Source of the DNA: Spiroplasma endosymbiont of Agriotes lineatus
GTDB lineage: Bacteria; Bacillota_I; Bacilli_A; Mycoplasmatales; Nriv7
NCBI RefSeq assembly: GCF_964019485.1
Contig: NZ_OZ026448.1
Span: 62,001-126,000 of the forward strand
Length of the DNA stretch: 64,000 bases
Direction of reading: 5' to 3'
This document shows, one piece after another, positions 59,340 through 63,873 of the stretch. How positions within the stretch are numbered: position 1 is the first letter of the stretch; each line of letters begins with the position of its first letter. The position numbers and the translations under genes are program-made. Below the pieces are notes generated by a model. That model worked only from the letters and a program-made list of their open reading frames with translations. It made no database searches and was not told the origin of the DNA.

Positions 59340-60429
59340 TTAATTTATTAATTCTTGTAATTTTTGAAATGGTGATTTATTTTGTAATGCTGAATGACAG
59401 CGTTGGAAGTTGTAATAGTAATAATATTGATTTAAGAAATGTTGAATTTCATTTTAATTTAGTTTTTTATCCTTAAAATAAAATAATTTGGTATAATGTT
59501 GGTGGAATCATTCGATCTTCCCGTTGCTCTGAGGAGAACGGATTGGTGTGGTTTCGTGGACAATTCCGTTCCTTGAAAGAAAGGTTGTAAAAGGCCTTTC
59601 TTTTACTTTATATGCTTTTTTATTACTTCAATTAGTAGTAGTAAATTCAGGAGCATTATCAGTGCGAAGGCGTTTAATTGTTATACCAAGTTCGCCGAAA
59701 TCTTTCACTGCTCTTCGCAAGGCATTAACCGCATTATTAGTTCCTAAACTATCATAAACATAACCAAATGTGCTATGCGTGTCATTTCGTCAATGAAATC
59801 ATAAATGTAATATTTTTTATCAACCGGAAAACTTGATGTAGTAATGATTTTGGCATCCATTTGTAAAAGACCGATATCGGAACTTCATAACGCTTAAAAT
59901 GGCGTTTAGTTTGTTTGATTTGTTGTTTTAATTATTTTCAACGAGAGTCAGATTTAATTCAGCGATAAAAAGTTTTGATGTTTTTAGGAACTTCTGAATT
60001 TTTAATATCGTAAAAACACATTTTTAAATTGTTAAATAAAGAATACATTCCGCCGGCTTGAAGATTTTTGTAATCAAAATACAAATCACATACTTTTTCA
60101 CGAGAATTTAAACTATATTAATAATTAAGATTTTGTGGTTTTTTAGTTTTAAACAATAACAAATCTAAATTGTCAGAATAATAAGCGGTCATAATTTTTT
60201 CTGCCCAGCGATAAAAAGTTTTTGTTGCATTCTTAAAATATTTTTTAATAAGTTTTGTTAAAGTAATTTCTTCAATATAGAAATAAGTACATAAATTTAA
60301 ATATGCAGTAATAGTAATGTGTTTTTTAGTTTTATAGTAATAAGGATTACGACAATTAGCACTTCTTAATCAACTTTGTGCTTTTGCTTTTAAATCGGCT
60401 AAGTCAGCTTGGGAAATAATATATTTCAT
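59340..60429 (-). pseudogene. Plectrovirus-type DDE transposase, decayed
   Basis: MKYIISQADLADLKAKAQSW starts at ATG 60429. The reading runs FYRWAEKIMTAYYSDNLDLLL and, after a TAA near 60119, VCDLYFDYKNLQAGGMYSLF and FYRWIKSDSRW. Frame changes near 59925, 59880 and others precede the integrase-core C terminus (SNGKIERFHHTLYQIIL-like, NWNEIQHFLNQYYYYYNFQRC, HSALQNKSPFQKLQEL). It resembles the SpV1 ORF3/IS30-type transposase used for integration. Many stops make it dead. Confidence 0.65.
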
Positions 60430-60506
60430 TTTTTAACTCCTTAAATTAAGAAAATCGTATTACAAAAAATACGATTTTCAAAAATATTTATTAAATTATT
60501 AATTAA

Positions 60507-60923
60507 TTAGGGTTTTCCGACCGAAAATGAGTTTATATAATAATCAGTACTTTTAAAACTAATAGAAAATTTAACATCAATAATCTTATCAATTAAATAA
60601 CAAATACTAGTCTTATAAGTGCCATAAACTCCATTATCCTTATAAAATTTCACAATTTTATCAAGGACAACACCTTTCTCAATTTCAAAACTTATATAAT
60701 TATGATATTTAAATCGTTCTTCTATATCGCCAGGCAAGGGACTAATGCCACCGTAAAAAATTAAATTGCCTATATTTTGCAATGAATATGGATATTGAAG
60801 TAATGTATTATCTAAACTAACAAACTCCAAATCATATTTTTTTTCAATTTTACTATTAACAGAATTACAAGCAGAAACTAATATTACATTTATTAAACTT
60901 AATGCGGTTAAACTTTTTTTCAC
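60507..60923 (-). CDS. Lipoprotein carrying a segment of the viral DUF3688 protein
   Basis: 138 aa from GTG 60923, AAAGGAGG upstream. The signal MKKSLTALSLINVILVSACN has a good lipobox VSAC (Cys near 19), so the protein would be anchored on the outer face of the membrane. Residues 32-135 are nearly identical to residues 57-160 of the large prophage protein at 61279-62895, in both protein and DNA. Single differences are scattered (LPGDIEERF versus LPSDIKERF, ICYLIDKIID versus IGYLIDKIIN). It is intact while both neighbours are broken. A role in surface exclusion of related phage is inference. Confidence 0.7.
   Translation of the reverse strand: MKKSLTALSLINVILVSACNSVNSKIEKKYDLEFVSLDNTLLQYPYSLQNIGNLIFYGGISPLPGDIEERFKYHNYISFEIEKGVVLDKIVKFYKDNGVYGTYKTSICYLIDKIIDVKFSISFKSTDYYINSFSVGKP
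60521..60830. repeat. 310-bp direct repeat, copy 1
   Basis: About 95% identical to 62416-62724. Both begin CCGAAAATGA and end CAAACTCCAA. It covers the shared domain of the lipoprotein and the DUF3688 gene. Confidence 0.9.
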
Positions 60924-60977
60924 ATAAATAAAAATCCTCCTTTCAAAGAAATTACATTATATAATAATTATAGATAT

Positions 60978-61275
60978 TTAAGAAAACTTTTTTAATATCA
61001 TTAATAAGATTGCTAATGGTACTACAAATTCAAATAACATCTGAAATGCTGGAATAACTTCAAACACCGGAAAGGCGGTTTTGGTAAAATTAATCGTTGT
61101 TTTAGCAATATCCGCACCCGCACGCAAGGCAAGGGAAGGGGGGCGAATTAAAAGATTAATCCCCGAAAAAGACCAAGTAATCAATTTAACAGGCTAACCA
61201 GAAGCCGTGCTGAATACCCACCCACCACCACGATACGGGCACTAAATAAACCTCAATAAGAACAGTTGGGCGCAG
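60978..61275 (-). pseudogene. Plectrovirus small membrane protein, frameshifted
   Basis: The readable end is RAGADIAKTTINFTKTAFPVFEVIPAFQMLFEFVVPLAILLMILKK, one or two membrane spans, ending at 60978. The start of this frame (near 61184) has only a TTG and no ribosome site. Upstream residues DLIPAPNCSYWGLFSARIVVVVGGY lie one frame away, so a frameshift near 61160 is likely. Position and composition fit a plectrovirus virion protein. Confidence 0.5.
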
Positions 61276-61278
61276 GAA

Positions 61279-62895
61279 TTAAGTCATTCTCATATTACCA
61301 CTTATTCCGCCACCAATAAAAGCTGTTGAATTCAAAATGTTAAAATTGTATAAAGAACAATGATATTCAGTGCTTTCACCTTTCTTTTTATATAGCGGAA
61401 CAGTCAGTGTAAAAATATTAATTCCATACATCACATCAACTTTGGCATTGTAAAAATGCAGTTTATTGCTAATAGCATTCCATAATTAGTTATCATATGC
61501 TTTTAAAACATTAAAATCTATTTGATAAGAACTTTTGCCAGTATTAAAACCATTGGCAATTTGTTTATCTTTAACAAATAAATAGGAACGAAAAATCATA
61601 TTCTTACTATTTTCGATTGTTGAACCAAAGTTAATTAAATACTGTTTGGGATAAAAAGTAATTAAGGAACGATAGAAAAAGCCCATTTGTAAAACATTTT
61701 TAGGGATTTGTTGCATTCCTTTGTAATCTAATTCTACATAAGTAGAAACATTCATATCAAAACTTGCATAAAAGAATTGTACGAAAAAACCACCTAAAAC
61801 TTTATAAATTTTATCAAATAACTCATTAATAAAATCAATAATTAAATCTTCTTGATAATAGAGTATAAAATCTTTAAAATCAGTTTTTAATTTATCATCA
61901 TAGCGTAAAAAATGGAAAGTATTACCATAATAATTAACTTGTCCAAAAAAGGTATTAATAAAATCTCCTCCAAAGCTTGTTTGCGAGCCAGATTTTCAAA
62001 GCGATTTACCATTTTCTAAAAACTCATTACTACCCACAATGCTGCCATGCTCAGTTTTTATAGTAATAATATCACCAAAACTAGAAAAGGAAAGTTCTCT
62101 AAAAATAACTTTTTCAATAAAACCGGGCGGATATGAATTTTTGCGACTTAAATTAAATTTACTATTTTGTTTAAAACCATTTAATTTAATTGATATTTCA
62201 TTCATATATTTAAAATTATCATCAAAGAAATTAAAAATTGGGACTCAATATAAATAGCTATAATTAAATTTATCAAAATCTCGCCGTTGTATCATCAAAT
62301 AATCTAACTTATCTTGAAACTGAATATAATCATACTCGCCATCATTTCTAGTTATTTCCGTGGGCGTGGGTAATGGTTGCTCTTTATCTTTTTCAGGTAG
62401 AGGAGACATTTCAGCCGAAAATGAAGTTATATAATAATCAGTACTTTTAAAACTAATAGAAAATTTAACATTAATAATCTTATCAATTAAATAACCAATA
62501 CTAGTCTTATAAGCGCCATAAACTCCATTATCCTTATAAAATTTCACAATTTTATCAAGGACAACACCTTTCTCAATTTCAAAACTTATATAATTATGAT
62601 ATTTAAATCGTTCTTTTATATCACTAGGTAAGGGGCTAATACCACCATAAAAAATTAAATTGCCTATATTTTGCAATGAATATGGATATTGAAGTAATGT
62701 ATTATCTAAACTAACAAACTCCAATTTACAACTATTACCACATTGACTAGGATTTGTGGCTCGTTTTTCTCGTTTCATAAAAGAAGAATGTTCCATATTA
62801 GGTTTTGGTGGTTGTTTTGTATCAAAGAATGCCCCTAACGGCACCAAACCAATAAACATTATTAATAAATCAAGAAATAATCTTATGCATCTCAT
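61279..62895 (-). pseudogene. Large plectrovirus DUF3688-type protein with premature TAA
   Basis: Open from ATG 62895 to TAA 61486 (469 aa). The same frame continues as LWNAISNKLHFYNAKVDVMYGINIFTLTVPLYKKKGE to the next TAA at 61279, so the stop cuts off about 68 residues. A signal-like start MRCIRLFLDLLIMFIGLVPL is followed by the domain shared with 60507-60923 (residues 57-160), a middle with PTEITRNDGEYDYIQFQDKL, and a beta-rich tail with SFGGDFINTFFGQVNYYG. In SpV1-like viruses this position holds a large virion or adsorption protein. The 3' end would be lost in this copy. Confidence 0.7.
62416..62724. repeat. 310-bp direct repeat, copy 2
   Basis: About 95% identical to 60521-60830, inside the DUF3688-type gene. 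A recent duplication or recombination between them would explain the lipoprotein at 60507. Confidence 0.9.
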
Positions 62896-63286: not shown

Positions 63287-63532
63287 TTAACTCCTTAAAA
63301 TTAAATATATTGTTGATAAAATGCAAATCGTTCCTAAAATTTGGAAAATCGGATGTTGAGAAAATAATCTAATCATTGGTTTAAACAAATCTAAAATTTT
63401 AATATTACTTGATAGAACTTTATTAAAATATTCTAAACCCTCACGCACACAGGCTCATAAACCTAAAAAGTCATTTAAAGCAAAAATAGAAAAAACAGCA
63501 GCAAGAATAAATAATATTATCAATTTAAACAT
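63287..63532 (-). CDS. Plectrovirus two-span membrane protein
   Basis: 81 aa: MFKLIILFILAAVFSIFALN, ILDLFKPMIRLFSQHPIF, then ILGTICILSTIYLILRS. It aligns with the broken copy at 14516-14769. ATG 63532 has AGGTAGG upstream. It is probably a virion or assembly protein inserted in the membrane. It is 3 nt from the next gene and translation is likely coupled. Confidence 0.7.
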
Positions 63533-63549: not shown

Positions 63550-63873
63550 TTATTCGTCGTCCGTGTTGTGTTGGTTAACTCACGGTCTATTTTTAGGATT
63601 ATTACCACTAAATTTCTTAATTGGACCACTAGATGATTTTTTCTTAGCTCCTCAATTAGAAACTGATTTTTGATATTTTTTACGAAAACCAACTTTTGGT
63701 CGTTCAATATAAATACCTAAAATGCCGCCAATTACAAGATTTATCACAAGCATAATTAGCGGAAAAATAATAATGTGAATATCTGTTCCAGGAATGGTTA
63801 AAGTTCAAATTAAATCAAAAACTTTATAAAACATATTGCCAATCAAACTAGCCATTTTTTCTAAGTTTTCCAT
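63550..63873 (-). CDS. Plectrovirus membrane protein, one or two spans
   Basis: 107 aa: MENLEKMASLIGNMFYKVFD, then TDIHIIIFPLIMLVINLVIG and a basic tail (RPKVGFRKKYQKSVSNWGAKKKS). The broken copy at 14238 has the same layout (KVFDLIWSLL, VPGTNIQLIF, basic end). A hydrophobic stretch with a C-terminal positive cluster is typical for filamentous phage coat proteins that contact DNA. AAAGGAG precedes ATG 63873. Confidence 0.7.

What the first reader, a model, noticed from the sequence alone, without database searches (positions are those of the whole stretch)
60507..62895. Surface lipoprotein built from a segment of the prophage's own virion-type protein
An intact lipoprotein gene (60507-60923) has a signal and lipobox plus about 104 residues nearly identical (about 95% in DNA) to residues 57-160 of the DUF3688-type protein at 61279-62895. 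The viral genes on both sides are broken while this one is open. In filamentous phages, host display of the adsorption protein's N-terminal domain can block infection by related phage. Plectrovirus DNA integrated in Spiroplasma has been linked in the literature to virus resistance. The inference is that this lipoprotein is a domesticated superinfection-exclusion factor made by duplication of a viral domain.
Basis: partly seen in the sequence, partly recalled or inferred. Interest (0 to 1): 0.72.

Follow-up and report, generated by a model that had tools for sequence, protein, structure and literature searches.

The report
Phage lipoprotein copying its adhesin domain
Many rod-shaped viruses of Spiroplasma bacteria carry a small surface-lipoprotein gene that holds an almost exact copy of the variable domain of their own attachment protein, so the infected cell would display the virus's own docking domain, probably to keep related viruses out.

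Summary
The repeat is real: 300 nt, 96%, shared by an open 138-aa lipoprotein gene (60507-60923) and the N-terminal domain of a frame-broken adsorption-type protein (61486-62895). The lipoprotein is no one-off domesticated duplicate: it is a standard gene of plectrovirus-like elements, found beside intact virion genes and surviving no better than they do. The unexpected result is allele matching. The domain is hypervariable between elements (median 39% identity; body 92%), yet each lipoprotein matches its own element's domain: 47 of 51 neighbouring pairs (shuffles 3.4), and 59 of 71 in a second lineage (about 8% expected; five elements are in both sets). The same design, on the opposite strand and with an internal segment, occurs in virus records: matched in SkV1_CR2-3x and, as DNA, in SpV1-C74, mismatched in SpV1-R8A2B; unannotated there. 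Best explanation: a viral superinfection-exclusion or receptor-masking lipoprotein that displays the virus's own attachment domain, kept matched by gene conversion and selection. Function is untested. The exclusion idea stands; 'domesticated' and 'DUF3688' do not.

The parts
60507..60923 (-). lipoprotein gene (LIP), 138 aa, next gene after the adsorption-type protein
   Evidence: relatives at the same place in other elements
60867..60923 (-). leader peptide with lipobox-like LVSAC (Cys19)
   Evidence: sequence; this Cys is invariant in 16 type representatives; motif name recalled
60521..60820 (-). shared tip-domain DNA, copy in the lipoprotein
   Evidence: direct repeat D1, 96% identity
60935..60943 (-). 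ribosome-binding-like AAAGGAGGA before the lipoprotein
   Evidence: read; AGGAG- or GGAGG-like site in 50 of 50 full-length LIPs
60967..60995 (-). promoter-like TTAAAA-17-TATAAT before the lipoprotein
   Evidence: TATAAT in 36 of 40 distinct upstream stretches against 8.5% of random windows, (copies not independent)
60450..60479 (-). terminator-like hairpin after the lipoprotein
   Evidence: 1 such site found in 4 kb, 0.7 expected in shuffles
61486..62895 (-). adsorption-type (p3/CoaA-position) protein, first 469 aa, frame broken downstream
   Evidence: intact 622-aa homologue with leader and C-terminal hydrophobic segment
62415..62714 (-). shared tip-domain DNA, copy in the adsorption-type protein
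   Evidence: direct repeat D1
61279..61434 (-). part of the adsorption-type protein in another frame
   Evidence: one search compared with the intact protein
60978..61184 (-). C-terminal remnant of the adsorption-type protein with its membrane segment
   Evidence: one search compared
63287..63532 (-). 81-aa small membrane protein (ORF9 position)
63550..63873 (-). 107-aa protein (ORF5 position)
59454..60429 (-). broken DDE transposase downstream of the lipoprotein
   Evidence: frames; an intact relative matches the IS481 model below its cut-off

Best explanation
The gene is a normal gene of plectroviruses, not a host gene. It makes a small lipoprotein anchored on the outer face of the single cell membrane, carrying the same variable domain that the element's adsorption protein carries. 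In infected cells, or cells with an integrated element, the displayed domain would occupy the surface molecule that this domain binds. Viruses of the same type would then not adsorb, and freshly extruded virions would not stick back to the producing cell. When the virion domain is exchanged, the lipoprotein copy is replaced to match, by recombination between the two copies and by selection. Shown here: gene, position, open frame, domain identity, allele matching, pooled purifying selection, homogenisation. Inferred: lipidation, surface display, receptor binding, exclusion.
For: Matching: 47 of 51 neighbouring pairs are of one type, shuffles mean 3.4 and at most 11; without five elements that belong to lineage 2, 42 of 46. 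With both genes intact, 23 of 23 match, four of them lineage-2 elements. In lineage 2, 49 of 50 elements with an open adsorption gene and a called lipoprotein match; the exception has a truncated lipoprotein. Hypervariability sits in this domain: 39% against 92% in the body. Domains with little mutual similarity are still matched. An opposite-strand version in another host clade is matched in 20 of 22 evaluable records. Pooled pN/pS is 0.31 among lipoproteins. The adsorption-type protein has pIII-like ends. Precedents: in Ff phages expressed pIII saturates TolA and gives superinfection immunity (passages of PMC7070036); the T5 exclusion lipoprotein gene llp lies adjacent to and downstream of the receptor-binding-protein gene (passages of PMC9586334).
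Against: No functional data. SpV1-R8A2B, a virus genome record with both frames open, is mismatched, so a match is not needed for every virus. Mismatches also occur in decayed elements. Of 74 domain loci, 26 lack the lipoprotein, and 7 of 10 open lineage-2 adsorption genes without a called lipoprotein have no copy downstream. Scans found no such gene in SVTS2 or SVGII3. In single types pN/pS among lipoproteins ranges from 0.05 to 1.56. Receptor binding by the domain is inferred from position and variability. The predicted structure was too poor to use (mean pLDDT 48).
Confidence: 0.6

Rival explanations
1. Neutral concerted evolution: two copies of a domain sit near each other in one replicon and keep converting each other; the match carries no function.
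For: Own pairs are closer at synonymous sites (pooled pS 0.064) than other same-type lipoprotein-domain pairs (0.104), and lower in 13 of 15 types, so conversion happens. A fused gene at G000 1025 kb points to recombination between the copies.
Against: The lipoprotein keeps leader, Cys, ribosome site and open frame, with pooled pN/pS 0.31. The design recurs on the other strand with another leader and another part of the protein. Conversion explains how copies match, not why the lipoprotein persists.
Confidence: 0.15
2. Sequence reservoir: the second copy is a cassette for switching the virion's tip domain.
For: Variable domain with conserved borders, repeated nearby; rare mismatched elements could be intermediates.
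Against: A reservoir should hold different alleles, but the copies are nearly identical; it also needs no leader, Cys or ribosome site, all of which are conserved.
Confidence: 0.06
3. Homotypic recognition: virion domain and lipoprotein bind each other, gathering virions or cells of one type.
For: Identical domains on virion and cell fit self-binding as well as shared receptor binding.
Against: Adsorbing to already infected cells would waste virions (inference); no binding data.
Confidence: 0.08
4. Prophage lipoproteins serve the symbiont in its arthropod host (adhesion, immune contact), as proposed for prophage lipoproteins of a tsetse symbiont.
For: PMC12408004 (passages) reports many lipoproteins in Spiroplasma prophage regions and suggests a part in host adaptation.
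Against: Does not explain matching to the element's own adsorption protein; no extra retention over structural genes.
Confidence: 0.06
5. Domesticated host superinfection-exclusion factor made by a one-time duplication.
For: Open frame among broken viral genes in the window.
Against: Gene of an intact element and of virus records; decay as in structural genes; other elements carry their own version at the same place.
Confidence: 0.03

Closest known systems
Superinfection immunity by pIII of Ff filamentous phages
   Same: The adsorption protein itself, made inside the cell, saturates a receptor (TolA) and blocks further infection (PMC7070036 passages).
   Different: There it is the virion protein; here a separate lipoprotein gene carries only the variable domain and is matched to it.
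T5 Llp exclusion lipoprotein
   Same: Small phage lipoprotein encoded just downstream of the receptor-binding-protein gene, blocking binding of that protein (PMC9586334 passages).
   Different: In the passages seen, Llp is not described as a copy of the receptor-binding protein; it acts from the periplasm by changing the receptor's shape.
Ltp of Streptococcus phage TP-J34
   Same: Phage lipoprotein tethered outside the membrane, giving superinfection exclusion (PMC3952083 passages).
   Different: It blocks DNA injection, and a reference title there names the tape measure protein as target; no family match was found for the window lipoprotein.
Receptor interference by endogenous retroviral Env (Fv4)
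   Same: A virus-derived receptor-binding protein displayed by the cell blocks viruses that use the same receptor (PMC9967133 passages).
   Different: Eukaryotic and host-encoded; here the virus carries the second copy.
Plectroviridae: SkV1_CR2-3x, SpV1-C74, SpV1-R8A2B
   Same: Assembly ATPase homologous; a lipoprotein frame with a copy (or, in R8A2B, another type) of an ORF1 segment downstream of ORF1.
   Different: Lipoprotein on the opposite strand, different leader, internal segment of ORF1; unannotated in the records.

Membership tests
Plectroviridae-type element | assembly (Zot/p1-type) ATPase related to known plectroviruses | tested here: met
   a relative's intact ATPase (L155) is 35% identical to SVTS2 ORF2 and 28% to R8A2B ORF2; the 10 matching phage records are of five Spiroplasma plectroviruses
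Plectroviridae-type element | gene order ATPase, ORF5, ORF9, ORF1 (adsorption), transposase | tested here: met
   one search compared
Plectroviridae-type element | major coat protein homology | tested here: inconclusive
   80-aa candidate at the coat position; no PHROGs or Pfam match and no meaningful NCBIfam match
Plectroviridae-type element | rod-shaped virions released | not testable with these tools
   needs virion preparation
Superinfection-exclusion lipoprotein (Llp/Ltp-like function) | leader plus lipobox-like motif and conserved Cys | tested here: met
   Cys invariant in 16 type representatives; motif name recalled
Superinfection-exclusion lipoprotein (Llp/Ltp-like function) | gene next to the adsorption-protein gene | tested here: met
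   55 nt between the two genes in an intact element
Superinfection-exclusion lipoprotein (Llp/Ltp-like function) | blocks infection when expressed | not testable with these tools
   bench test proposed
Superinfection-exclusion lipoprotein (Llp/Ltp-like function) | sequence homology to a described exclusion lipoprotein family | tested here: not met
   no Pfam, PHROGs or NCBIfam match for the window lipoprotein; the defence library padloc was not searched
Receptor interference by a displayed virion domain | the cell-side protein carries the virion's own adsorption-protein domain | tested here: met
   (sequence level; display itself untested)
Receptor interference by a displayed virion domain | the domain binds a cell receptor | not testable with these tools
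   inferred from position and hypervariability
DUF3688 family | match to the Pfam model | tested here: not met
   only hit up to E 1 was DUF3674 at 0.99
Domesticated host gene | retained better than neighbouring viral genes | tested here: not met
   42 of 48 present copies open, against 48 of 56 and 48 of 54

The most novel reading that the evidence does not exclude
Plectroviruses carry a self-recognition pair: a hypervariable adsorption domain and a surface lipoprotein displaying the same allele. The pair defines interference groups (same type excluded, other types admitted) and is kept matched by gene conversion and selection. The design arose at least twice, in two strand arrangements.
Probability: 0.5. 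Interest if true: 0.87.

Novelty: new variant of a known kind. Interest (0 to 1): 0.8.

Why it matters
If true, genome sequence alone would predict which viruses a spiroplasma resists, because domain types would equal interference groups. It would be a phage case of receptor interference with a dedicated gene, a counterpart to endogenous retroviral Env. It adds an unannotated gene to virus genomes, one of them published in 1990 (reference list), and suggests that part of the prophage-linked lipoproteins of insect symbionts serve virus-virus competition rather than the insect.

Tried and rejected
Domestication: rejected. DUF3688: no support. Fold of the domain: the AlphaFold model from 8 sequences had mean pLDDT 48 and was not searched; a profile search of solved structures gave one chance-level hit (E 0.39). 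IMG/VR scans with the lipoprotein profile and the ATPase found no relative; with SkV1 ORF1 they found one contig. Tblastn of the window proteins against phage records found nothing, nor did the lineage-2 adsorption protein against plasmids; the tool says near relatives of the window may be left out there. Scans for lipobox frames in the named viruses misled me at first: one search showed only the plus strand of R8A2B and SVTS2, so I noted wrongly that R8A2B had none; one search covered both strands but was too strict and missed the R8A2B, SkV1 and C74 genes; the looser one search found those three, and in SVGII3 only the ATPase and a 48-aa frame, and nothing in SVTS2. The lineage-2 ORF scan gave 3 frames that I judge spurious; they stay inside the 71. 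A cassette reservoir was ranked low because the copies are identical rather than different.

Papers: passages were seen of PMC3952083, PMC9586334, PMC9967133, PMC5091035, PMC11436027, PMC7070036, PMC2386487, PMC10232968, PMC12408004 and PMC3563533, and the whole text of PMC8295915. Others were seen only as search listings.
Full report
WHAT IS IN THE WINDOW. The window is G000:C1:62001-126000 of a 1.24-Mb genome, read here with table 4. At its end lies a decayed plectrovirus-like element on the minus strand. The lipoprotein gene (60507-60923, 138 aa) has a GTG start, a leader ending LVSAC, a ribosome-binding-like AAAGGAGGA and a hairpin after its stop. Upstream of it lies an adsorption-type protein whose frame is open for 469 aa (61486-62895) and then broken. 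The two share a 300-nt direct repeat at 96%, 94% over 103 aa in protein. The assembly ATPase and the transposase are broken.

IT IS A NORMAL VIRAL GENE. A search of the own genome with the lipoprotein gave 11 matches, the gene itself among them. One is the lipoprotein of a second element with the same pair at 889-891 kb, three are domain copies in adsorption-type frames, and six are more distant lipoproteins at 33-41%; five of these six lie downstream of a copy of the large protein that carries a recognised domain, the sixth (454 kb) does not. In an intact element of a related genome (L108) the order is coat-like 81 aa, ATPase 331 aa, 77 aa, 81 aa, adsorption-type protein 622 aa with leader and C-terminal hydrophobic segment, lipoprotein 142 aa with 55 nt between, and transposase 359 aa. 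The intact ATPase of another relative, L155 in the Spiroplasma endosymbiont of Nebria riversi, is 35% and 28% identical to those of SVTS2 and SpV1-R8A2B, and the 10 phage records that match it belong to five Spiroplasma plectroviruses. The ICTV profile names gene 1 of SVTS2 the adhesion protein CoaA (PMC8295915, whole text); the adsorption-type protein here has the same position, but is not recognisably similar to SVTS2 ORF1 and only weakly to R8A2B ORF1 (E 0.005).

NO SIGN OF DOMESTICATION. Around 74 domain loci in five genomes, the lipoprotein is present in 48 and open in 42. For two small structural genes the figures are 48 open of 56 present and 48 of 54; Fisher p = 1.0 against the two combined, and p = 0.21 for presence against one of them. 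The lipoprotein survives like other genes of the element.

ALLELE MATCHING, LINEAGE 1. Searching the five genomes of the genus with a profile of seven lipoproteins gave 149 listed matches (more were not listed), split by query start into 73 lipoprotein-type and 76 domain-only places. I clustered the domains at 75% identity. Of 51 lipoproteins lying within 3.5 kb downstream of a domain on the same strand, 47 have the same type, over 18 types; 10,000 shuffles gave a mean of 3.4 and a maximum of 11. Five of the 51 (type 0) sit in lineage-2 elements that are counted again below; without them it is 42 of 46. Three of the four exceptions are short lipoprotein fragments: one is followed by the same-type domain in another frame (G001 1036 kb), one begins with the matching residues and then breaks (G001 990 kb), one has no domain left (G004 83 kb). 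The fourth (G000 961/963 kb, adsorption gene broken) is a true mismatch. Where both genes are intact, 23 of 23 match, four of them type 0. Between types the domain is 25-63% identical (median 39%), whereas a 330-aa stretch of the body is 77-97% (median 92%), over 91 type pairs. A caveat: these places were found with a lipoprotein profile, so adsorption genes with a quite different domain would be missed. Lineage 2 and the virus records below were found by the body of the adsorption protein and are free of this bias.

ALLELE MATCHING, LINEAGE 2. The same genomes hold a second plectrovirus lineage whose domains, type 0 apart, were not among the listed matches of the lineage-1 profile and often resemble each other little: 102 of 153 type pairs score below 60 in local alignment, no null being run. 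I took the first 98 listed of 283 matches to its adsorption-protein body. A conserved motif could be placed in 89, and 71 lipobox frames were tested, of which I judge 3 spurious. Of the 71, 59 match their own element's domain at 75% or more over at least 50 aa; the rate expected from matches to other elements is 7.7%. With a looser length limit (25 aa, one split case added by hand), elements with an open adsorption frame and a called lipoprotein are 49 matched and 1 mismatched (a truncated lipoprotein). Those with a broken frame are 14 matched and 4 mismatched, two of which have lost the domain region. Of 10 open adsorption genes without a called lipoprotein, 2 have a frame-broken matching copy downstream, 1 a mismatched copy (37%) and 7 none.

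VIRUS RECORDS AND ANOTHER HOST CLADE. Two complete virus records, SkV1_CR2-3x and SpV1-C74, annotate a repeat inside and after ORF1. In SkV1 it is a 300-nt inverted repeat at 96%; in C74 two pairs of arms at 94% and 98%. The second copy lies in an unannotated opposite-strand frame with leader and Cys: a lipoprotein carrying an internal ORF1 segment. In C74 that frame is broken in the record. In R8A2B the lipoprotein is open but mismatched in the middle; it resembles the ORF1 segment of another element, L279 (63 of 76 residues). Searching 320 genomes of the order with a piece of SkV1 ORF1 hit 13 genomes, 9 of them in one genus. Of 34 records examined (three virus records, one IMG/VR contig, 30 loci), 20 are matched: 15 by script, out of 21 tested, three read by eye (L272, L279, L282), C74 by DNA and the IMG/VR contig at 99% over 291 nt. 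Two are mismatched (R8A2B; L288, whose ORF1 is broken). Five lack the ORF1 region (L268, L271, L273, L289, L291), and seven (L275-L278, L285, L286, L293) gave no callable pair and were not pursued. Some records are near-copies (SkV1 and L266; L284 and L292), so these are not 22 independent events. Scans found no such gene in SVTS2 or SVGII3. The lineage-1 profile was found in 5 of 298 genomes of the order, all in the window's genus.

HOW THE MATCH IS KEPT. Within types, own lipoprotein-domain pairs differ less at synonymous sites (pooled pS 0.064) than other lipoprotein-domain pairs (0.104), lipoproteins among themselves (0.091) or domains among themselves (0.083); own is lower than other in 13 of 15 types. 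Under a single old duplication own and other should be equal, so copies are homogenised within an element. Pooled pN/pS is 0.31 among lipoproteins, 0.38 among domains and 0.44 within own pairs; single types vary, some above 1. At G000 1025 kb a single frame joins the adsorption leader to the lipoprotein end, as expected from recombination between the copies. Several domain types share one lipoprotein leader class, so domains change while leaders stay.

MECHANISM. Most likely the lipoprotein displays the virus's own attachment domain on the infected cell and masks the receptor, which excludes same-type viruses and spares progeny from re-adsorption. For Ff phages, expressed pIII saturates TolA and blocks superinfection (PMC7070036, passages). 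T5 places its exclusion lipoprotein gene next to its receptor-binding-protein gene (PMC9586334, passages). Fv4 shows the same logic for retroviruses (PMC9967133, passages). A TATAAT before the lipoprotein in 36 of 40 distinct upstream stretches, against 8.5% of random windows, hints at expression apart from virion genes; relatedness of copies inflates this number. In the other clade the gene is on the opposite strand and must be transcribed apart from ORF1. Receptor binding, lipidation, display and exclusion are inferred.

PRIOR ART. A 2025 preprint reports many lipoproteins in Spiroplasma prophage regions and suggests a role toward the insect (PMC12408004, passages). A 2024 review of superinfection exclusion has no occurrence of 'Spiroplasma' or 'lipoprotein' in its main text (PMC11436027, term counts). 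My ten paper searches listed no report that I could recognise as the matched pair, but I read only listings and passages, and the library lacks most subscription journals.

LIMITS. Only five genomes of the genus are held, and many copies are near-identical, so counts overstate independence; the number of types (25 clusters with the lineage-1 profile, four of them short fragments; 18 in lineage 2, one spurious) is a fairer gauge. No usable structure and no functional data were obtained.

Noticed in passing
window 60914-60925: A run of 7 A at the lipoprotein start puts the upstream ATG out of frame, so the gene must start at GTG; a relative (G001 27597) has one A fewer and an in-frame ATG. Slippage here could switch the gene on and off.
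   Followed up: no
G000:C1:1025139-1025597 (L034): One frame joins adsorption-protein leader, domain and lipoprotein end: it looks like a deletion of about 1.9 kb by recombination between the two copies.
   Followed up: partly
upstream of type-9 lipoproteins: G000 679276, G001 786449, G001 908627: A broken start of a second lipoprotein leader precedes the present one, as if one lipoprotein had replaced another.
   Followed up: no
L043 3039-3440 minus; L263 6039-6506 minus; L264 3510-3695 minus: Unannotated lipoprotein frames in the R8A2B, SkV1_CR2-3x and C74 records; in C74 the frame is broken in the deposited sequence.
   Followed up: yes
L262 6699-7637: SVGII3 carries a truncated P89 pseudogene with internal repeats after ORF1, where other viruses have the lipoprotein.
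   Followed up: no
G000:C1:766526-768837 (L042): A lipoprotein and the adsorption-type protein beside it share a domain that the lineage-1 profile did not call in the large protein; read by eye, it looks like a further matched type.
   Followed up: partly
G000:C1, whole genome: 68 matches to the window's large protein in one 1.24-Mb genome: a very heavy plectrovirus load.
   Followed up: partly
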